Positions 27,101-57,781 of a DNA stretch of 64,000 nucleotides are shown here, piece by piece (position 1 is the stretch's first letter; the number at the start of each line of letters is the position of its first letter). A program made the position numbers and the translations under genes. Origin of the DNA: Fragum whitleyi. Lineage: Eukaryota > Mollusca > Bivalvia > Cardiida > Cardiidae. Below the pieces are notes generated by a model that saw only the letters and a list, made by a program, of their open reading frames with translations, did no database searches and was not told where the DNA came from. The stretch covers positions 52,205,933 through 52,269,932 of the forward strand of contig OX411544.1 of the NCBI GenBank assembly GCA_948146395.1, given 5' to 3'.

Positions 27101-30079
27101 CGCAGAGAAGAAATTTATAAAGGCAGACCTAGATTACAATGGAGTAAGATTTTTTTTCAATTTCGTGAATATGTTTAATTTTCTTTACATTTGGATAGAT
27201 TGTTGTGACTAAGTGTTTTTGACCATTTGAAAAGTGCATTTAACTCTTTTCCTTTTTCTAAAAAGAAATGTCCTCTTATAAAATACAGGACAGAGCGCTA
27301 GCAAAATTCTATAATGTACACGTTATTCAATCAACAAATACGCGATGTTCTTTAAATTAAGACAATTGAATGAAAAGCTTACAGATTAAAATTCTTACCT
27401 TAATTTATATTTAGACATTTTTCCAGAATTCGTGTTTGTTTTGTTGAGTACCCCTTTTTCAATTCGAGTTGTATAATTTGACTTGTGATTTAGGTTACTC
27501 ATTTCAAATTCAAGCAACATTTTTTTTGCTTGTTCAAACACTGCTCAAATTACCATTGAACTAAATGTTTAGACCTCTATCCTCAGTATATCGATAAAGA
27601 AGAGCTAGACAAAGTGCTAACAGATACAGTTGGTATGTTTACACCTAACCAAGTGGACTCGATATTTAAAGAAGTGGATTCGAATAACAGCGATATGCTC
27701 GACTTCTATGAAGTGCTCACAGTAAGTGAACATATTTACAAAGATATTTGGTCACGTCGTTTTGATTGTCCGTCTACGTAAAAATCAATAACAAGAGGGC
27801 CATAGTGGCCCTAAAGCGCTCACCTGAGTTAACAGTCTTAAGATCTGACCTCTTAACCTAGTTTTTAACCACACTTGACCCAAATTCAAACCAGACAGAT
27901 GTTTGAAGACAATTTCAATCTGGCTAATTCTCTGGATGATAGGGCAAAACTTATGGCCTCTAGAGTGTCTACAAGGATTTTCAAAGATTTGACCCTGTGA
28001 CCTCGTTTGTGACCCCACTTGACCCAAGTTCATCAAGAAAGTCATTCTGACCAATTTTCAAGTTGATTGAGCAGAATTATGGCTTAAAGAGTGAGTGTCT
28101 ACGAGGTTTTTCTAAAACTTGAACCTGTGTCCTTATTTTTATTCCCATTTGACCATAATTTATACTTTACCTAGACTTCATCAAGACAATCATTCTGACC
28201 AATTTTCAGATTGATTGAGCAAAAAATATGGCTTATAGAGTGTCTACAAAGTTTTTCTAATATTTGACCTCGTGACCTCATTTTTGACCCCACCTGACCC
28301 AATTTTGAACTAGTCCAAGATTTTATCAAGACAATCATTCTGACCAATTTTTAGGTTGATTGAGCAAAAAATATGGCTTCTAGAGTGTCTACAAGGTTTT
28401 TCTAATATTTGACCTCGTGACCTCATTTTTGACCCAACTTGACCCAATTTGGAACTTGTCCAAGATTTCATCAAGACAATCATTCTGACCAATTTTCAGG
28501 TTGATTGAGCAAAAAACATGGCTTCTAGAGTGTCTACAAGGTTTTTCTAATATTTGACCTTGTGACCTCATTTTTGACCCCACTTGACCCAATTTTGAAC
28601 TTGTCCGAGATTTCATCAAGACAATCATTCTGACCAATTTTCAGGTTGATTGAGCAAAAAATATGGCTTCTAGATTTTATTGATTGATTGAATGGAGTTT
28701 AACGCCACTTTCAACATTATTTCAGTTATATCGCGGCGGCTGGAGCACCTAACAATGGTTTCCTGGTATTTCTCTCACCAGTACAACCACCACATTCTTT
28801 CCTAGCCTCCAGCTACTATCTCACATAGGTCTACGATTATCAACCTATTGGTGAGAGACAAATAGTCGGAAAGAATGAGTGCCGCCGTCGGGGATCGAAC
28901 CCGGGACCTCTAGATTGACAGTCCGACGCGCTACCAACTGCGCTATGACGGCGGCATATGGCTTCTAGAATGTCTACAAGGTTTTTCTAAGATTTGACCC
29001 TGTGACCTCATTTTTGACCCCACTTGACCCAATTTTGAACTTGACCGAGATTTCATCAAGACAATCATTCTGACTGATTTTCAGCTTGATTGAGCAAAAA
29101 ATATGGCTTCTAGAATGTCTACAAGGTTTTTCTAAGATTTGACCCTGTGACCTCATTTTTGACCCCACTTGACCCAATTTTGAACTTGACCGAGATTTTA
29201 TCAAGACAATCATTCTGACTGATTTTCAGGTTGATTGAGCAAAAAATATGGCTTCTAGAGTGTCTACAAGGTTTTTCTAAGATTTGACCCTGTGACCTCA
29301 TTTTTGACCCCATTTGACCCAATTTCGAACTTGATCTAGATTTCATCAAGACAATCATTCTGACTGATTTTCAGGTTGATTGAGCAAAAAATATGGCTTC
29401 TAGAGTGTCTACAAGGTAAATGTTGACGACGCACGACGCACGACGAACGACACACGACGGACGACGGACGACGGACATCATGGGACCACAAAAGCTCACC
29501 TTGAGCACTTCGTGCTCAGGTGAGCTAAAAAATGGAGCATTCCAACAAAAATTGATTTGATGAAGATTAATGTACTTAGAAGGGTATGCAATACCATCCC
29601 GTGGACCAACAGGATTTCCCGATAGATTGTAACTTCGTAATTCAATGAAAGTACCAACATTTTCAACCTCACATTTGCCCATTTTACCCTATTTGACGTC
29701 TAAGCGAAGCCTATTATGCCAATATTGTCATCACGATGAGCAGCCATGACTTCACCACTCATGAAAATATACATGTAATTTTGTTGTTCACTCAATGAAG
29801 GATCAATCGATCGTGCACTGAAATAAACAACTATCCTCTACATATGTAAAAGTTCTTGACACAGATTTGCAAATCTATGTAAAATTTTCCATTTATTCTA
29901 ATGTTCATATATCATTGTTAATTAATTGTGCATATTATTTATTCGATTCATCTTTAATCATTTCTTTATTATTATTTGTTATATTTTTCCAGGTTCTGAA
30001 TAAACTCTACTCCCGTAGAAGGACAAATTTACCTCAATCATTGCAGCAAAATTACTCCAGAACATGTACAGTACAGTAA
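11491..30079 (+). CDS. EF-hand protein with C-terminal CaaX-like box, gene 2 (seven exons, about 487 residues)
   Basis: Joined exons 11491-11639, 22929-23526, 24161-24346, 25578-25796, 27054-27143, 27587-27721 and 29993-30079 keep one frame; the 11.3-kb intron joins AA to T across a phase-2 border. Order: basic Ser/Thr-rich N-terminus (1-249), coiled coil (about 270-311: RDAARDEAKKALEELRETQ), Lys/Pro/Ser linker ending YYW (312-384), EF-hand loops at about 409-420 (DLDYNG + YIDKEE) and 445-456 (DSNNSDMLDFYE, with Asp in place of Gly at position 6), and a 28-residue tail ending CTVQ. M258 (ACCACTATGG context) is an alternative start giving 230 residues. It is a tandem paralogue of the gene ending at 6849. 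Calcium binding is well supported; prenylation and membrane tethering are inferred; the N-terminal region was not recognised. Confidence 0.82.
11850..12020. repeat. MITE with AATCGTCTT/AAGACGATT hairpin core
   Basis: Core ATCGTCTTGATAAGACGAT flanked by CCTATGTTGTGG and CCCACAACATAGGG, with an AATAAAGATTTTAGA segment and CCCCCTCTTATCTGTACCT end. Related copies lie at about 6340-6480 and 46705-46915. Confidence 0.7.
12288..12751. repeat. GAGCCTGTGCGTGAC-family MITE, split by another MITE
   Basis: Left end AAGCTTGTGCGGGACATTTCC and right end GGAAATATCACGTATAGGCT (inverted) belong to one element. Its GACCAG/GTCTTTGC core is interrupted by the element at 12468-12699. Confidence 0.75.
12468..12699. 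repeat. MITE with TTTTACTAAA...TTTAGTAAAA ends
   Basis: Ends GGGCCAATTTTACTAAA and TTTAGTAAAACAGGACCC, with subterminal CTTACGA/TCGTAAG and inner TCTACCTTGCAATATCTC. Copies at 33884-34127 and 32200-32452, and two more copies hold the big elements at 30164 and 34278. Confidence 0.8.
13378..13700. repeat. MITE with AGTAAAACTTG...TTAAGCGACCAC end
   Basis: Left end CAGTAAAACTTGTGTTAAGC, right portion GGTGGTCGCTTAATAGACG. The middle holds a perfect hairpin AATCGTCTTATTGAGACGATT. A second copy spans about 15911-16245, a diverged one 48600-48895, and a fragment lies at 12210-12275. Confidence 0.7.
14000..14815 (+). mobile_element. Remnant of large repeat element ending TGCTCAGGTGAGCTAAAAA
   Basis: Repeated phrases such as TTCAAAAGGGTTCATCCTTG and TGACCAAGTTT match the element at 30164-32050, and the right end GTGCTCAGGTGAGCTAAAAA is the same. 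No intact left end was found. A tRNA-like piece interrupts it near 14431-14503. Confidence 0.7.
14431..14503 (-). repeat. tRNA-derived sequence (SINE head type)
   Basis: On the minus strand an A-box-like CCTAGTGGTAAAGACGC is followed by a B-box-like TTGTTCGAGCCCC. The arms do not close into a good acceptor stem, so it is read as a SINE head or degraded tRNA, not a tRNA gene. Confidence 0.55.
15457..15681. repeat. GAGCCTGTGCGTGAC-family MITE, near intact
   Basis: Ends GAGCATGTGCGTGACATTTC and GAAATCTCACGCACAGGCTC are inverted copies with ACAATTTGAAA/AAATTGTTGG inside, about 225 bp in total. Confidence 0.85.
15911..16245. repeat. MITE with AGTAAAACTTGCATTAAGC end
   Basis: CAGTAAAACTTGCATTAAGC and, further in, GGTCGCTTAATAGACGTGG, with hairpin GAATCGTCTCAATGAGACGATTC at the centre (arms of ten or more bp). 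Same family as 13378. Confidence 0.75.
17400..17527 (+). repeat. Retroelement 3' end with (ATT)n tail
   Basis: The sequence GTTACCTTCGTTAAATAAAG runs into TTTTATTATTATT. The same ACCTTC..AATAAAGATTTTATTATT end occurs at 46070-46106 and, on the minus strand, at 21139-21171. This is typical of a non-LTR element's 3' tail; the body was not recognised. Confidence 0.6.
18913..19140 (-). repeat. V-SINE-like SINE, 5'-truncated, with 11-bp target duplication
   Basis: Shares the GGGTTTAACGCCGCTTTC tail, GGCTGGAGCACCTAACAATGG and GTGCCGCCGTCGGGG blocks. Direct repeats CCCTAGATAAG flank it at 18902-18912 and 19141-19151. Confidence 0.85.
19189..19307. repeat. Palindromic MITE, GCGTTCAGG family
   Basis: Starts CCTTGCGTTGAGGATGACAA and ends TGCACCGTTTTGTCCTCAAG, with GTGCACGTGCAAAGCCGGG in the centre. 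Confidence 0.75.
21048..21171 (-). repeat. (AAT)n microsatellite as a retroelement tail
   Basis: About 95 bp of AAT repeats followed by AATAAAATCTTTATTAAATG and AAGGTA. Read on the minus strand this is the ACCTTC..AATAAAGATTTTATTATT end seen at 17481, so the microsatellite grew from the tail. Confidence 0.7.
22929..23526 (+). CDS. EF-hand gene 2, exon 2 (long N-terminal exon)
   Basis: One base completes the codon begun at 11638; 199 codons follow without a stop, from CTTTTCAG|T to AAG|GTAGGT. It starts GQFGRQTQRRRKFGVQIR, is rich in Arg, Ser, Asp and Lys, has no membrane segment or recognised domain, and looks mostly disordered. Length and composition in this AT-rich context argue for real coding. 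Gene 1 has no counterpart inside the window. Confidence 0.78.
23750..23980. repeat. GAGCCTGTGCGTGAC-family MITE
   Basis: Right end GTAATGTCACGCACAGGCTC is well kept; the left end GAGCCCGTGCTCC is diverged. It lies in intron 2 of EF-hand gene 2, just after a fragment of the GCGTTCAGG palindromic MITE (about 23556-23640). Confidence 0.7.
24161..24346 (+). CDS. EF-hand gene 2, exon 3 (coiled coil; alternative start)
   Basis: 62 codons, phase 0 at both ends, TTTGCAG|GTC to AAG|GTATAA. After VLIRSTTT comes MGDQTETKEVTPEFVHYIK, then a heptad-like charged helix ending QEIERLEK. The ATG at 24185 could start a shorter 230-residue form if an alternative promoter is used. Confidence 0.85.
25147..25177. 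repeat. Fold-back core GTAGCTACAGC-type
   Basis: CATAACTACAGTTTGAATAAAGCTGTAGCTACG folds as a short hairpin. Sister copies lie at 1617, 10389, 14888 and 42212. Confidence 0.65.
25578..25796 (+). CDS. EF-hand gene 2, exon 4 (linker, ends EYYW)
   Basis: 73 codons from TTTTTAG|AAA to TGG|GTACGT. It starts KSKSTKKPPPKKKPANN, continues as a Ser/Thr/Gly-rich low-complexity stretch and ends DVDTCEYYW. Same phase and same YYW border as gene 1 exon 3, but 20 codons longer. Confidence 0.9.
26415..26456. repeat. Short hairpin
   Basis: AATATCGCTAATTTT and AAAATTAGCGATATT are perfect 15-bp inverted arms in intron 4 of EF-hand gene 2. Confidence 0.7.
27054..27143 (+). CDS. EF-hand gene 2, exon 5 (first half of EF-hand 1)
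   Basis: 30 codons from TTCTAG|AAA to GGA|GTAAGA: helix KLGEMFPTLPMFYVLDAEKK and loop positions 1-6 (DLDYNG). The intron interrupts the loop between positions 6 and 7, as in gene 1. Confidence 0.92.
27587..27721 (+). CDS. EF-hand gene 2, exon 6 (rest of EF-hand 1, EF-hand 2)
   Basis: 45 codons from CCTCAG|TAT to ACA|GTAAGT. It completes loop 1 (YIDKEE) and carries loop 2 DSNNSDMLDFYE; Asp replaces the usual Gly at loop position 6, so site 2 may bind Ca2+ more weakly. It ends EVLT, matching EVLM in gene 1. Confidence 0.92.
27790..29531 (+). mobile_element. Tandem-repeat mobile element A (pearl/Helentron-associated type), 145-bp units
   Basis: Left end AACAAGAGGGCCATAGTGG then GCTCACCTGAG (27818-27828). 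The right end has a GACGAC-rich tract, hairpin GAGCACTTCGTGCTC and CTCAGGTGAGC (29515-29525) followed by TAAAAAA. The core is about nine units of 144-146 bp, marked by CTAGAGTGTCTACAAGG. A SINE sits inside. The end and core layout fits bivalve pearl-type/HINE elements; that class call is inference. It lies in the last intron of EF-hand gene 2. Confidence 0.8.
28675..28955 (-). repeat. Full-length tRNA-headed SINE with 14-bp target duplication
   Basis: On the minus strand: tRNA-like head with A box TAGCGCAGTTGGTAGCGCG and B box GGTTCGATCCC, the conserved body, and the tail GTTAAACTCCATTCAATC. Direct repeats ATATGGCTTCTAGA flank it (28661-28674, 28956-28969). The layout resembles the V-SINE family known in molluscs (RUDI). 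Confidence 0.92.
29993..30079 (+). CDS. EF-hand gene 2, exon 7 (C-terminus, CTVQ)
   Basis: Follows TTTTTCCAG: VLNKLYSRRRTNLPQSLQ, then ends YSRTCTVQ and TAA. 28 residues, identical in length to gene 1's last exon, with a conserved CaaX-like end. No AATAAA is obvious in the next 80 bases. Confidence 0.93.
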   Translation, partial: VLNKLYSRRRTNLPQSLQQNYSRTCTVQ

Positions 30080-30163: not shown

Positions 30164-32050
30164 AACAAGAGGACCCTGAGGGCCCTAAATCGCTCACCTG
30201 ATCTTACAAGTAAATTATCATTAAGACTCCATTTCCTATGATATGGCATGAACCTTCCCATTTTCAACAGAGTTCATTCTTGTGACCTGGCAAACATTTT
30301 GATCAAGTTTCATGAAAATTGGACTATATTTGTGGCGTTTGGAGCTCTTACGAGAAAATTGTCATTAAGGCCCCTTTTCCCGTGATATGGCATGTATACT
30401 TCCCATTTTCAAATAAGTTCATCCTCATGACCTAACAAACATTGTGACAAAGTTTCATGATGATTGGACCATATTTGTAGCTTCTAGAGAGTAAACAAAA
30501 AAATTGTCATTTAGACGCCTTTTCCTGTGATATGGCACCGATCCTTACCATTTTCAATAGACTTCATCCTGTAGAGTGAAAACAAGAAATTTGTCATTAA
30601 GGCCCCTTTTCTCGTGATATGGCACGGATCCTTTCCATTTGAGCAATTTTCATAAGTGACCACCCAAGGAATATTTCTGCCAAGTTTGGTTGATTTTGAC
30701 CCATAAGTTTAGGAGGAGATGTCGTTTAAAGATATTGTTGACAAAATTGTCATTAAGGCCCCTTTTTCTGTGATATGGCACGGATCCTTCCCATTTTCAA
30801 TAGACTTCATCCTCATGACTTAACAAACATTCTGACCAAGTTTCATGAAGATTGGACCATATTTGTGGCTTTTAGAGTGAAAACAAGAAATTTGTCATAA
30901 AGGCCCCTTTTCCCGTGATATGGCACGGATCCATTTCATTTGAGCAATTTTCATAAGTGACCACCCAAGGAATATTTCTGCCAAGTTTGGTTGATTTTGA
31001 CCCATAAGTTTAGGAGGAGATGTCGTTTAAAGATATTGTTGACAAAATTGTCATTAAGGCGCCTTTTTCTGTGAAATGGCACGGATCCTTCACATTTTCA
31101 ATTGACTTCATTCTCATGACCTAACAAACATTCTGACCAAGTTTCATTAGTTTGGACCATATTTGTGGCTTCTAGAGTGAAAAAAAGAAAATTGTCATTA
31201 AGGCCCCTTTTCCCGTGATATGGCATGGATCCTTTCCATTTGAGCAATTTTCATAAGGGACCACCCAAGGAATATTTCTGCCAAGTTTGGTTGATTTTGA
31301 CCCATAAGTTTAGGAGGAGATGTCGTTTAAAGATATTGTTGACAAAATTGTCATTAAGGCACCTTTTTCTGTGAAATGGCACGGATCCTTTCCATTTTCA
31401 ATAGACTTCATCCTCATGACCTAACAAACATTCTGACCAAGTTTCATGAAAATTGGACCATATTTGTGGCTTCTAGAGTGAAAACAAGAAATTTGTCATT
31501 AAGGCCCCTTTTCCCATGATATGGCACTGATCCTTTCCATTTGAGCAATTTTCATAAGGGACCACCCAGGGAATATTTCTGCCAAGTTTGGTTGATTTTG
31601 ACCTATAAGTTTAGGAGGAGATGTCGTTTAAAGAAATTGTTGACAAAATTGTCATTAAGGCGCCTTTTTCTGTGAAATGGCACGGATCCTTTCCATTTTC
31701 AATAGACTTCATCCTCATGACCTAACAAACATTCTGACCAAGTTTCATGAAAATTGGACCATATTTGTGGCTTCTAGAGTGAAAACAAGAAATTTGTCAT
31801 TAAGGCCCCTTTTCCCGTGATATGGCACAAATCCTTTCCATTTGAGCAATTTTCATAAGGGACCACCCAAGGAATATTTCTGCCAAGTTTGGTTGATTTT
31901 GACCCATCAGTTTAGGAGGAGATGTCGTTTAAAGAAAAAGTTGACGCCGTGACGGACAGACGGACAGATGGACAGACGGACAGACGGACGCCGGACAACG
32001 ATCGATCACAATAGCTCCCTTGAGCACTTCGTGCTCAGGTGAGCTAAAAA
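30164..32050 (+). mobile_element. Tandem-repeat mobile element B, about 300-bp units
   Basis: Left end AACAAGAGGACCCTGAGGG then TCGCTCACCTGA. The core has about four or five units near 300 bp, marked by AAGGAATATTTCTGCCAAG at about 30669, 30968, 31268, 31568 and 31868. A GGACAGACGGACAG tract precedes GAGCACTTCGTGCTC and AGGTGAGCTAAAAA. It is inserted in a TTTTACTAAA-type MITE (flanks 30142-30163 and 32051 on). Confidence 0.8.
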
Positions 32051-34277: not shown

Positions 34278-35883
34278 AACAAGAGGGCCATAGTGGCCCT
34301 AAATCGCTCACCTGAATGAACTGTCAAAAATTGTTTAAAGTAGGTTTAGAAAAAAGATGTAAGCCAATGACCAAGTTTTTGACCCAACTTGACCTAATTT
34401 CAAACTCGTCTGAGATTTATCAAAACAGTCATTCTGACCAAATTTCAGTTTGATTGGGTAAAAAATGTGGCCTCTAGAGTGCATAGAGGGTTTTACTAAG
34501 ATTTGACCCCGTGACCTAGTTTTTGACCCCAGTTGACCCAAATCCAAAATTGTCCAAGATTTTATCATGACAATCATTCTGACCAAATTTCAGGTTGATT
34601 GGGAAAAAAATGTGGCCTCTTAATTGCATACAGGGTTTTTCTAAGATTTGACCCCGTGACCTAGTTTTTGACCCCAGTTGACCCAAATTTGAACTCATCC
34701 AAGATTTCATTAAGACAATCATTCTGACCAAATTTCAGATTGACCAGTCAAAAAATGAGGCCTCTAGAGTGTATACAAGGTTTTTCTAAGATTTGACCCC
34801 ATGACCTAGTTTTGGACCCCAGTTGACCCAATTTCGAACTTGTCCAAAATTTTATCAAGACAATCATTCTGACCAAATTTCAGGTTGATCGGGCAAAAAA
34901 TTTGGCCTCTAGAGTGTATACAAGGTTTTTCTAAGATTTGACCCCGTGACCTAGTTTTTGACCCCAGTTGACCCAAATTCAAACTTGTCCAAATTTTATC
35001 AAGACAATCATTTGGACCAAATTTCAGGTCAATCGGGCCAAAAATGTGGCCTCTAGAGTGCATACAAGGTTTTTCTTAGATTTGACCCCCATGACCTAGT
35101 TTTTGACTCCAGTTGACCCAAATTCAAACTTGTCCAAGATTTTATCAAGACAGTCATTCTGACCAAATTTCAGGTTGATCGGGCAAAAAATGAGGCCTCT
35201 AGAGTGTATACAAGGTTTTTCTAAGATTTGACCCTGTGACCTAGTTTTTGACCCCAGTTGACCCAATTTCGAACTTGTCCAAAATTTTATCAAGACAATC
35301 ATTCTGACAAAATTTCAGGTTGATCGGGCAAAAAATTTGGCCTCTAGAGTGTATACAAGGTTTTTCTAAGATTTGACCCCGTGACCTAGTTTTTGACCCC
35401 AGTTAACCCAAATTCAAATTTGTCCAAAATTTTATCAAGACAATCATTCGGACCAAATTTCAGGTCAATCGGGCCAAAAATGTGGCCTCTAGAGTGCATA
35501 CAAGGTTTTCTTAGATTTGACCCCATGACCTAGTTTTTGACCCCAGTTGACCCAAATTCAAACTTGTCCAAGATTTTATCAAGACAGTCATTCTGACCAA
35601 ATTTCAGGTCAATCGGGCCAAAAATGAGGCCTCTAGAGTGTATACAAGGTTTTTCTAAGATTTGACCCTGTGACCTAGTTTTTGACCCCAGTTGACCCAA
35701 TTTCGAACTCGTCCGAGATTTTATCAAGACAATCATTCTGACCAAATTTCAGGTTGATCGGGCAAAAAATGTGGCCTCTAGAGTGCATACAAGGTAAATG
35801 TTGACGGACGGACGACGGACGCCGGACATCCACCTACCCACAAAAGCTCACCTTGAGCACTTCGTGCTCAGGTGAGCTAAAAA
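34278..35883 (+). mobile_element. Tandem-repeat mobile element C, 145-bp units
   Basis: Ends AACAAGAGGGCCATAGTGG with TCGCTCACCTGAA, and GAGCACTTCGTGCTC with AGGTGAGCTAAAAA. The core is about ten units near 145 bp marked by GGCCTCTAGAGTG, related to but distinct from element A. The GACGGACGGACGACGG tract lies just before the right end. Confidence 0.82.
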
Positions 35884-53671: not shown

Positions 53672-54413
53672 GTGTACCCAGTTTGAAGTTGCTAGCACTG
53701 ATGGCTCAGGGGATATGGTCCGGACAAAAATGTCAGGATAAAAAACAACAACGGACAATAACTAAAAAAGTGGATGTGGCAGAGTAACAGTTCTTGAGCA
53801 TTACACTTCTTCTCAATGAGATCTACCAGTGTACAAAGTTTGAAGTTGCTAGGAAGTTGCTAGGTCTTATGGTTTAGGAGATAAGAACGGGACAAAAATG
53901 TAAGGATAGAAACAACAAAGGGCAATAACTCAAAAAGTGGACATGGCAGAGTGACAGTTCTTGTACATGACACTTGTCCTCAATGATATCTATAAGTGTA
54001 GCAAGTTTGAAGTTTCTAGCACTTATGGTTTAGAAGAAGATATTTTCCGGACAAAAATGTAAAGGTAAAAACAACAAAGGGCAATAACTCAAAAAGTGGG
54101 TGTGGCAGAGTAACAGTTCTTGTACATGACACTTGTCCTCAATAAGATCTATACGTGTACAAAGTTTAAAGTTGCTAGCACATATAGTTTAGGAGATATG
54201 ATCCGGACAAGAATGTAAGACTAAAAACAACAAAGGGCAATAACTCAAAAAGTGGACATGGCAGAGCAACAGTTCTTGTACATGACACTTGTCCGCGATA
54301 AGATCTATCAGTGTACAATGTTTGAAGTTGCTAGCACTTATCGTTTAGGAGATATGATTCGGACAAAAATGTTGAAGTTGCTAGCACTTATAGTTTAGGA
54401 GATATGATCCGGA

Positions 54414-57109
54414 GTAACAGTGTAACGTGTCCCCCTGGTTAACGTGTCCCCGGGGACAGGTTACCCCGGGGTAACCTGTCCCCCCCTGGGGTAACATGTC
54501 CCCCCCATGGAAAACATTATTTCTTATCAAAATTTTAATTTTTCATTCATGCTATTTTGTATAACTCTAAATCAATTTAAAAAAAAAAAACATATAAAAA
54601 GTATATCTGTATTTTTGAGTGGTTTTCAATTCTTCAAACCAAAATATAATTTGCTTACTATGATTATCTAATCAAATCAATTTTCCTTTTTTTTTTATTA
54701 TTATTATCATAGTAGTCAATCTTGGTATTTTATGCAAATATTTGAAAGTTTAATGAGAAAAATATAAAAAAAAAACCTTTTAGTGTGTGTGTGTGGGGGG
54801 GGGGGGGACACGTTACCCCGGGGTAACCTGTCCCCCTATTCAAAATGCTTTTATTCATTTGATTTCACCTTCCAGTCATTCTATTTTCTTAAGAAATTAT
54901 CATTTGATATTCATTGAAAAATATTTCATTCATTTTTTTTTTAAAATTGATGCTTTTTTTAAAGAAGAATCTTAGCGCTTGAACATTTTAATTTTTTGCA
55001 ATATTACTTTTGCAATATCTAAGTTTATTCAAGTCCATATTTAGATTGATAAATAGTATTTATTAACATATCATGTTAATATTGCAGTTTTTTAATAAGA
55101 AAGCAACATGACAAAATCATTCAATGCTTATGGAATAGGGGGACAGGTTACCCCGGGGTAACCTGGCCCCCTATTCCAAATACTTTTTTCATTAAAGATA
55201 TCACCTTCCAGTCATTCTTTTTTATTAAGAAAGATATTCTTAGAAAATTTCCTCAATGGATATGTATGTTTATATTGCTTTTTTTGTACCTTTTTAAAGA
55301 AAAATTTTAGCACTTGAATTTTTTTTATTATTGCATCATTTCGATTTTTTCAGAGTCTGTTATTTGATTGAATAATAGGTTTTAAAAACACAATTATCAT
55401 GTCAGTATTGCAGTTTTGATAAGAAAACAACATGTCAATTGACAAATTGTTAAAACTTGTATTTTGGAAAGGGGGACAGGTTACCCAAGCCTGGGTAACT
55501 TGTCCCCAGGGGACATGTTACCCCGGGGTAACCTGTCCTCCATTCCAAGTGCTATTTTTCGTTAAAGATATCACCTTCCATTTGTTCTTTTTTTAATTAG
55601 GAATGTATGGTATGATATACTTTGAACATTCCCTCAAAGAATATGTATGTAAAATATATTTTGAAATGTGTTGCTTTTCAAGAGGAATCTAAGCCAGTGC
55701 AATTTTCTTATTATTTGCATCATTTCAATTTTTTTCCAAGTCCATGGTTTGAATGATACAAAGCTTTATGAACATATAATATTAATATGGCAGTTTTGAT
55801 AAGAAAACAACATGACAAATAATTCAAAACTTTTTTCTTTTGAAAGGGGGACAGGTTGCCCAAGCCAGGGAAACATGTCCCCAGGGACAGGTTACCCCAG
55901 CTTGGGTAACATGTCCCCCCCCCCCCCCCCTTATACATACACATAGGGCCTACACTCTCAATGAATTTTCTAATAAGTGAATAATTTTTGTAGTAAGAAC
56001 AGATGTGATATAATAAAGACTATAAAATAACTTTCAAAGAAAAGAAATTGTTTTTGTAATCTTTTGTGAAAATTCCTGGTTAACATGTTAGCAATGTTTT
56101 CCCAGGCTGGGGTAACATTTTTTAGAGACAAGTGACCACAGCTTGGAAAATCTTACATGTACCCAAAACAATTCAGAATAAATTAGAAAGAGAAAATATT
56201 TTGGTAAATTTGTGCACAGATCATTGTTGAAAACCATTTTAGAGGTGGGACAGGTTACCCAGGCCTGGGTAACGTGTCCCCGGGGACAGGTTACCCCAGC
56301 TTGGGTAACCTGTCCTCCCCTAGACATACACATACACTCACAATAAAATTTCTAATAAGTGAATAACTAATTTGTATAACAGTTTTGATATAAAAGAGAC
56401 TATCATTCAGTTTTCAAATAAAGAAAAATGTATTTGCAATTTTTTTTTAATAAATCCTCATTAACAACCTTTTTTTGTGTTTTCACTGGGTTAACAGGCC
56501 TTGGTAACATGTTTCAGAGACAAGTGACCACAGCTTTGGAAACCTTACCCCCAAACAATTTGAAATATTATTAAATAATTGAAAACAAATGGGTTTATTT
56601 TTGCATATATCATTGCTGACAGCAGTTTTGGGGGTGGGACAGGTTACCCAGGCCTGGGTAACGTGTCCCAGGGGACAGGTTACCCCAGCTTGGGTAACGT
56701 GTCCCCCCAAATACACAAAGAAAAAAATCATGCTTTGACTAATTTTTCTAAAGACAAGATCATTCTTAGATATGTCCATAGTTATGATGACATTAAACAA
56801 TTATTTTTCTAAAAAAAAAAAAGTTTAATTGTTATAATACTTATCATGAAAAATATAAAAATCCTTCAGGACTGAAACAGTTCACAAAACAGATTAAAAT
56901 TACATACAGATCAAAGAAAGGGACTTGTAACGCATAGAATAAAAATATCTAGGTAAAAGAAATATGACTAAATATTGGTTTACAATAACTGTAGGGGGGG
57001 ACAGGTTACCCCAGCTGATTTCTAGGGTAACATGTCCCCGGGGACAGGTTACCCCGGGGTAACGTGTCCCCGGGGACACGTTACCCAGGGGACAGGTCAC
57101 CCTGGGACA
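54414..57109. repeat. Array of GC-rich palindromes in AT-rich spacers, with 5-bp target duplication
   Basis: GGGGACAGGTTACCCC and its inverse recur at about 54430-54500, 54805-54835, 55138-55172, 55472-55533, 55850-55920, 56248-56315, 56636-56706 and 56995-57105, about 330-400 bp apart. Spacers are AT-rich and related (TCACCTTCCAGTCATTCT recurs). CCGGA lies at both edges (54409-54413, 57110-57114), splitting a unit of element H. It looks like head-to-tail copies of a MITE with GGGGACAGGTTACC ends. Confidence 0.8.
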
Positions 57110-57781
57110 CCGGACAAGAATGTAAGGCTAAAAACAACAAAGGGCATTAACTCAAAAAGTGGGTGTGGCAGAGTTATGGATCTTGAACATGACACTTCTC
57201 CTCAATGAGATCTATAAATGTACACAGTTTGAAGTTGCTAGCACACATAGTTTAGGAGATATGTTCCGGACAAGAATGTAAGGGTAAAAACAACAAAGGG
57301 CAATAACTCAAAAAGAGGGCGTGGCAGAGTAACGATTCTTGAACATGACACTTCTCCTCAATGAGATCTATAAGTGTACCAAGTTTGAAGTTGCTAGCTC
57401 ATATGGTTTAGAAGATATAGCCCGGACAAAAGTGTGACAGACAGACGGACAGGCGGATGGACAGACAGACAGACGGAATCGAGCAAACCTATAGTCCCCA
57501 AACCGGTAACCGGTGGGGGACTAATAAGGACTTTTTAAAGAGACTGCATATTTGCTTTCCTAATCTTCCTTAGGGTTCTCGGGGCTAGTGAAACTGTGCG
57601 ACATATTAAACAGTAAGCTTAATTTTCTCTGCCTTCATGATAATGATAAAACTGTGAGCGCCATACCGTACACTATCCAGTGAACCCTGTATTACTTGTG
57701 TTTCAAAATTGAGGCTATAATTGCCAGTGATTTGTTTTCCCAAACATAGTAGCTGATACAGGGTTTCACCAAAAATATCTT

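What the first reader, a model, noticed from the sequence alone, without database searches (positions are those of the whole stretch)
54409..57114. 2.7-kb block of eight GC-rich palindromes in AT-rich DNA, bounded by a 5-bp duplication
GGGGACAGGTTACC and GGTAACCTGTCCCC motifs pair into long palindromes about every 370 bp, separated by related AT-rich spacers. The block splits a repeat unit of element H with CCGGA on both sides, so it entered as one piece. It looks like a head-to-tail chain of small transposons sharing ends, or a mobile satellite seed. The dense CG/AT alternation should form cruciforms and could serve as a protein-binding array.
Basis: partly seen in the sequence, partly recalled or inferred. 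Interest (0 to 1): 0.78.

Follow-up and report, generated by a model that had tools for sequence, protein, structure and literature searches.

The report
CCGG-targeting transposon packed with palindromes
The palindrome block is one copy of a gene-less jumping element that is repeated across this animal genome and inserts at CCGG sites; it is probably a Ginger1-type DNA transposon, and it is unusual because palindromic sites that look like protein-binding sites recur along its whole length and not only at its ends.

Summary
In detail: eight GC-rich palindrome clusters (31 half-sites, 0.65 expected) in a 2,697-bp insert that splits a 156-bp-repeat element.

The interpretation needs correcting. 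This is one transposon, not a chain of small ones. The window's own 1.22-Gb assembly holds 571 right ends and 488 left ends with CCGG (controls 0). All 16 copies with both ends found (of 20 loci) have CCGG on both sides; of 100 right ends listed without selecting for CCGG, 85 are followed by it. TGT...ACA ends, TIRs of about 71 bp and CCGG duplications match published Ginger1 transposons. No transposase-coding copy was found, so membership is structural only. Two copies differing by six substitutions sit at unrelated loci: the whole array moves as one unit.

The half-site GGGACA-N-GTTACCC varies less between copies than spacers do, and its central N varies more. That fits an internally multiplied transposase site; binding was not tested. 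Verdict: new variant of a known kind.

The parts
54409..54412 (.). left copy of the 4-bp target site duplication, CCGG
54413..57109 (+). the transposon copy, 2,697 bp, ends (A for T)GTAACAG...CTGGGACA
57110..57113 (.). right copy of the target site duplication, CCGG
54413..54483 (+). left terminal inverted repeat (about 71 bp, about 93% on the consensus; BLAST piece 54418-54483 is 91% in the window copy)
57040..57109 (-). right terminal inverted repeat
54420..54503 (.). palindrome cluster 1 (left end), half-sites < < > < <
54804..54835 (.). palindrome cluster 2, half-sites > <
55139..55170 (.). palindrome cluster 3, half-sites > <
55472..55540 (.). palindrome cluster 4, half-sites > < > <
55847..55918 (.). 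palindrome cluster 5, half-sites > < > <
56246..56317 (.). palindrome cluster 6, half-sites > < > <
56635..56706 (.). palindrome cluster 7, half-sites > < > <
56997..57102 (.). palindrome cluster 8 (right end), half-sites > < > < > >
54836..55846 (+). region of spacers 2, 3 and 4 (80-81% alike pairwise on the consensus) with clusters 3 and 4 between them
55919..56634 (+). region of spacers 5 and 6 (78% alike on the consensus) with cluster 6 between them
56086..56156 (.). decayed palindrome motifs inside spacer 5 (79% alike to 56478-56548 in spacer 6)
56478..56548 (.). decayed palindrome motifs inside spacer 6

Best explanation
The block is one copy of a non-autonomous cut-and-paste DNA transposon family, most likely moved by a Ginger1-type transposase (a relative of Gypsy integrase) supplied in trans. 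Shown: the same two ends at hundreds of places, a 4-bp CCGG duplication, TGT/ACA ends, inverted repeats of about 71 bp, movement of the whole array as one unit, and gain and loss of tandem units between copies. Inferred: the half-site GGGACA-N-GTTACCC, which makes up most of both inverted repeats, is the transposase recognition sequence; it was multiplied into the interior by duplication of units and template switching at palindromes; copies with intact sites move better, so the sites stay conserved while the spacers decay.
For: Own-assembly search: eight places besides the window match block bases 2-2698 at 89-92% (40 of 895 candidates scored). 16 of 16 copies with both ends found, out of 20 loci, have CCGG on both sides. 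571 right and 488 left ends with CCGG, reversed-pattern controls 0 (CCGG was part of these patterns). Without selecting for CCGG, 85 of 100 listed right ends (389 matches in all) are followed by CCGG. L016 and L017, on different contigs with dissimilar flanks, differ by 6 mismatches and 5 gap positions in 2.9 kb. Ginger1 has 4-bp CCGG (75%) or CCGT/ACGG (24%) duplications, TGTNR ends and TIRs of 40-270 bp (PMC2836005). Internal half-site positions differ from the consensus in 73 of 3190 cells (2.3%), spacers in 1028 of 25165 (4.1%), the central N in 25 of 288 (8.7%); 0 of 5000 column permutations matched the motif-spacer difference.
Against: No transposase-coding copy was found (incomplete searches). 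One of the two ends (TGTCC) does not fit TGTNR. The second Hydra target class CCGT/ACGG is absent among the 100 right ends (one CCGT right flank at L019). Half-site columns have more gaps between copies than spacers (6.6% against 1.6%), so whole half-sites are lost or gained often even though their letters are conserved. Gene conversion among some 30 half-sites could give the same low substitution rate without selection. No binding data.
Confidence: 0.6

Rival explanations
1. Same transposon, but the internal palindromes have no role. They spread and stay alike only through replication slippage, template switching and gene conversion, which GC-rich palindromes provoke.
For: Unit number varies (L013, L022, L045, L046). 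The 118-bp case L043 has an inverted copy of its right flank beside a 29-bp palindromic right end, as template switching at a hairpin would leave. Half-site columns have more gaps than spacers. The central N changes often, as shuffling of half-sites by conversion would also do.
Against: Successive clusters stay 371-390 bp apart across related and unrelated spacers alike (reference half-sites at consensus 749, 1120, 1496, 1883, 2273, 2649), and the half-site letters are conserved although the spacers of duplicated units have diverged by about 20%.
Confidence: 0.29
2. A CCGG-targeting DNA transposon of another, perhaps undescribed, superfamily that shares the target with Ginger1 by convergence.
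For: The transposase is unknown, one end does not fit TGTNR, and CCTG/CAGG rather than CCGT/ACGG is the second most frequent right flank (8 of 100).
Against: Target length and sequence, TGT...ACA ends and TIR length together are the published Ginger1 set. The weakly mirror-symmetric target flanks (R at -3 in 28 of 31, Y at the mirror position in 24 of 31, loci filtered for CCGG) would suit an integrase-like enzyme (recalled).
Confidence: 0.09
3. A head-to-tail chain of small transposons that share ends.
For: Clusters look like abutting inverted ends, and spacers 2-4 and 5-6 are tandem relatives.
Against: No clean single-unit insertion among 61 end pairs; CCGG lies outside the whole block in 16 of 16 copies; internal clusters lack the terminal TGTAACAG/CTGGGACA sequence.
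Confidence: 0.01
4. Assembly artefact (collapse or false expansion of palindromes).
For: Palindromic arrays are hard to assemble (general knowledge).
Against: Many loci on many contigs share the structure with their own flanks; 14 copies lie 2.7-7.2% from their consensus. Unit number at single loci could still be wrong.
Confidence: 0.01

Closest known systems
Ginger1 DNA transposons (Bao, Kapitonov and Jurka 2010, PMC2836005; abstract, part 1 of 5 of the text and passages seen)
   Same: 4-bp CCGG target duplication, 5' end TGTAA fitting TGTNR, TIR length within 40-270 bp, length near the published lower bound (2.6 kb), occurrence in a mollusc (Aplysia) already reported
   Different: No transposase found; regular palindrome array through the whole body; right end TGTCC; no CCGT/ACGG among 100 listed right ends
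Foldback elements Tetris and Galileo (PMC4079207, passages seen)
   Same: Repeats within or next to the inverted repeats, gain and loss of units, a source of satellite-like arrays; Galileo repeats are cited there as carrying extra transposase binding sites
   Different: Tetris has 8-10 bp duplications and is assigned there to Mutator; its tandem repeats lie within the TIRs
piggyBat and piggyBac ends (PMC11707139, passages seen)
   Same: Repeated motifs and palindromes in the transposon end bound by a transposase dimer
   Different: Confined to the ends; other superfamily and target
Helentron-associated HINE elements of oyster (PMC7492417, passages seen)
   Same: Non-autonomous bivalve elements that carry tandem arrays
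   Different: Rolling-circle elements without target duplications; element H of this window resembles these, the palindrome block does not

Membership tests
Ginger1 DNA transposons | 4-bp target site duplication, CCGG (or CCGT/ACGG) | tested here: met
   16 of 16 copies with both ends; 85 of 100 right ends not selected for CCGG
Ginger1 DNA transposons | Ends fit TGTNR | tested here: inconclusive
   Left end TGTAA fits; right end read inwards TGTCC does not. The paper states the pattern for the 5' end.
Ginger1 DNA transposons | TIRs of about 40-270 bp | tested here: met
   About 71 bp at about 93% on the consensus
Ginger1 DNA transposons | Gypsy-integrase-like transposase with GPY/F and OTU or Ulp1 domain, in the element or in an autonomous partner with the same ends | tested here: inconclusive
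   No open gene in the window copy. OTU 36 hits, rve 150 of 2,327 candidates scored, Ulp1 5 hits; the 59 of these on C1-C4 include none within 15 kb inward of 100 listed right ends. Incomplete: a Gypsy integrase nested in one copy was not among the rve hits.
Ginger2/Tdd | 4- or 5-bp duplications and a Ginger2 transposase | tested here: inconclusive
   4-bp length fits; the strict CCGG target is the published Ginger1 mark; transposase not found
Helentron / HINE | No target site duplication | tested here: not met
   CCGG duplication present
Foldback/Mutator-type elements (as Tetris) | Target duplications of 8-10 bp | tested here: not met
   Duplication is 4 bp

The most novel reading that the evidence does not exclude
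A Ginger1-type transposon whose whole body has become a regular array of palindromes that bind its transposase (or a host protein), kept by selection for mobility at a spacing of about 370-390 bp, so that each copy works as a scaffold or sponge for the protein that moves it and as a mobile seed for a new satellite.
Probability: 0.25. Interest if true: 0.62.

Novelty: new variant of a known kind. Interest (0 to 1): 0.42.

Why it matters
If the half-sites are transposase sites, this family shows a cut-and-paste element turning its own recognition site into an internal array of variable length, a step from transposon towards satellite DNA. Hundreds of copies with different unit numbers would let one test whether more sites mean more transposition. 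It would also offer a candidate binding motif for a Ginger1-type transposase; I saw none in the part and passages of PMC2836005 that I read.

Tried and rejected
Led nowhere: six motif strings in the paper library, 0 papers; palindrome pattern in genome contigs and viral contigs, 0 matches; Rfam at gathering score, one tRNA elsewhere in the window and nothing in the block; Pfam on ten window ORFs, no family; autonomous partner by OTU, rve and Ulp1 domains and a position check of the 59 hits on C1-C4; the best-scoring rve hit, which reads as a Gypsy element by its neighbouring reverse-transcriptase-like frames (my reading, no domain search); the longest end pair (13.5 kb), which holds a nested Gypsy element, integrase by Pfam and reverse transcriptase by my reading. 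A genome-wide count of the palindrome did not complete, so arrays outside this family were not surveyed.

Considered and dropped: cruciform formation as the function (strong folding, follows from any palindrome and shows no function); p53, RFX or nuclear-receptor sites (recalled likeness only, not tested); a 5-bp duplication (one search shows 4 bp).

Full report
Observation. The region was read in full. The half-site GGGGACANGTTACC (up to 2 mismatches) occurs 31 times in the window, every one inside the block, against 0.65 expected. Half-sites of both orientations form eight clusters separated by AT-rich spacers of about 290-330 bp. The two ends carry an inverted repeat (54418-54483 against 57040-57104, 91%). 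The longest frame without stop that I listed in the block is 105 codons. The host looks like a bivalve; that is recalled from the style of its repeats, and element H resembles the HINE elements described for oyster in PMC7492417 (passages). The assembly itself is unnamed.

One transposon, not a chain. A search of the window's own assembly (1.22 Gb, 38 contigs) with the block gave eight other places matching bases 2-2698 at 89-92%, and many partial matches (40 of 895 candidates scored, so counts are lower bounds). Of the 20 loci returned, one is the window copy itself; 16 showed both ends, and all 16 have CCGG directly outside on both sides. Of the other four, three show a right end only (followed by CCGG, CCGT and CCGG) and one a left end only (CCGG). 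L004 and L006 are one duplicated locus, and L003 and L013 have partly similar flanks, so these are 14 or 15 independent insertions.

Copy number and target. Right ends with CCGG number 571 and left ends with CCGG 488 (up to 3 mismatches, reversed-pattern controls 0). CCGG was part of those patterns, so they cannot measure target choice. A right-end pattern that leaves the target free except for barring A at its fourth base gave 389 matches. Of the 100 listed, 85 are followed by CCGG, 6 by CCTG, 2 by CAGG, 2 by CCCG and one each by TGGG, CCGC, CGGG, CCAG and CCAT (my count). CCGT and ACGG, the second Hydra class in PMC2836005, do not occur among these 100. In 31 of 39 loci (40 fetched, L006 set aside; kept only if both ends had CCGG) the neighbouring bases show a weak mirror-symmetric preference: R at -3 in 28 and Y at the mirror position in 24.

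Movement. L016 and L017 lie on different contigs, differ by 6 mismatches and 5 gap positions over 2.9 kb, and have dissimilar flanks, 300 bp to the left and 1,400 bp to the right. The whole array therefore moved as a unit, and recently by that measure. Fourteen copies chosen for length (2,619-2,799 bp; nine from the first 20 loci, five from the next 20) lie 2.7-7.2% from their consensus.

Length variation. Of the first 100 listed right ends, 61 pair with one of 85 listed left ends within 20 kb; lengths run from 118 bp to 13.5 kb, 42 of 61 between 2.0 and 3.5 kb. Both lists are capped, so the 39 unpaired right ends are not evidence of damage. L046 (1,579 bp) has five clusters at steps of about 361-374 bp, and L045 (1,230 bp) lost units too. 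L022 (6,820 bp) carries a ~600-bp double unit three times, the third split by a nested insertion. The 118-bp case (L043) is a remnant in which a 44-bp inverted copy of the right flank sits beside a 29-bp palindromic right end, as template switching at a hairpin would leave. The 13.5-kb pair contains a nested Gypsy retrotransposon. Ten inner stretches that do not match the element, in seven longer copies, show no long gene by eye (longest frame 153 codons); they were not searched for domains, and further non-matching stretches in five other loci were not looked at.

Anatomy. On the consensus, spacers 2-4 are 80-81% alike and spacers 5-6 are 78% alike; spacers 1 and 7 have only weak scores. Thirty-three half-sites match GGGACANGTTACCC exactly. 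From cluster 3 on, reference half-sites of successive clusters lie 371-390 bp apart; over 250 gaps in the fetched copies the distance from the last half-site of one cluster to the first of the next has a median of 322 bp (5-95%: 264-497). Internal half-site positions outside CpG and homopolymers differ from consensus in 73 of 3190 cells (2.3%), spacers in 1028 of 25165 (4.1%), the central N in 25 of 288 (8.7%); 0 of 5000 column permutations gave so large a motif-spacer difference. Against this, half-site columns have more gaps than spacer columns (6.6% against 1.6%): whole half-sites come and go. Gene conversion could give part of the pattern. Spacers 5 and 6 contain decayed motif clusters near their middle.

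Identity. Ginger1 elements have 4-bp CCGG (75%) or CCGT/ACGG (24%) duplications, TGTNR 5' ends and TIRs of about 40-270 bp (PMC2836005; abstract, part 1 of 5 and passages). The family here meets the target and TIR tests; of the two ends, one fits TGTNR. The transposase test is inconclusive: OTU gave 36 hits, rve 150 (150 of 2,327 candidates scored), Ulp1 5, and the 59 of them on C1-C4 include none within 15 kb inward of the 100 listed right ends. I therefore call it Ginger1-like. Ginger1 in molluscs is not new: a gastropod family is listed in PMC2836005 and an oyster satellite is annotated DNA/Ginger1 in PMC8268682 (table passage).

Mechanism. Transposases of other families bind repeated or palindromic motifs near the ends (piggyBac and piggyBat, PMC11707139, passages; Galileo as cited in PMC4079207, passages). 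The half-site here makes up most of both inverted repeats, so the simplest reading is that it is the transposase site and was multiplied inwards with duplicated units. Whether internal sites help movement or only ride along is undecided; I put the functional reading ahead because of the conserved letters and the even spacing across unrelated spacers. In five searches of the open library no listed title or abstract described such an array in a Ginger element; that library lacks most subscription papers, and Repbase and Dfam were not searched.

Noticed in passing
window 53672-54408 and 57114-57500: Element H, split by the transposon: 156-bp tandem repeats, a GACA-rich microsatellite and a CCGGTAACCGG-type palindrome at its right end, resembling bivalve HINE/Helentron elements.
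   Followed up: partly
window 54317-54413: A 50-bp tandem duplication breaks the register of the H repeat just left of the insertion.
   Followed up: no
window 28880-28952 (minus strand): tRNA match (Rfam RF00005, 47.8 bits), the only Rfam hit at gathering score; it overlaps a 145-bp repeat array.
   Followed up: no
window 28029-29417, 30200-31997, 34368-35795: Several further tandem arrays with units of 145, 156 and 301 bp, probably other array-bearing repeats.
   Followed up: no
L043:158-331: Remnant of the family with a 44-bp inverted copy of its right flank next to a 29-bp palindromic right end, a likely product of hairpin-driven template switching.
   Followed up: partly
L022 (whole), L032, L036, L011, L028, L030: Copies of the transposon are themselves split by other repeats, some with their own tandem units.
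   Followed up: partly
G000 C13:48045662-48048418 and C13:48052388-48055149 (L004, L006): The same insertion present twice in inverted orientation about 4 kb apart, with flanks 99.6% alike: an inverted segmental duplication or an assembly feature.
   Followed up: partly
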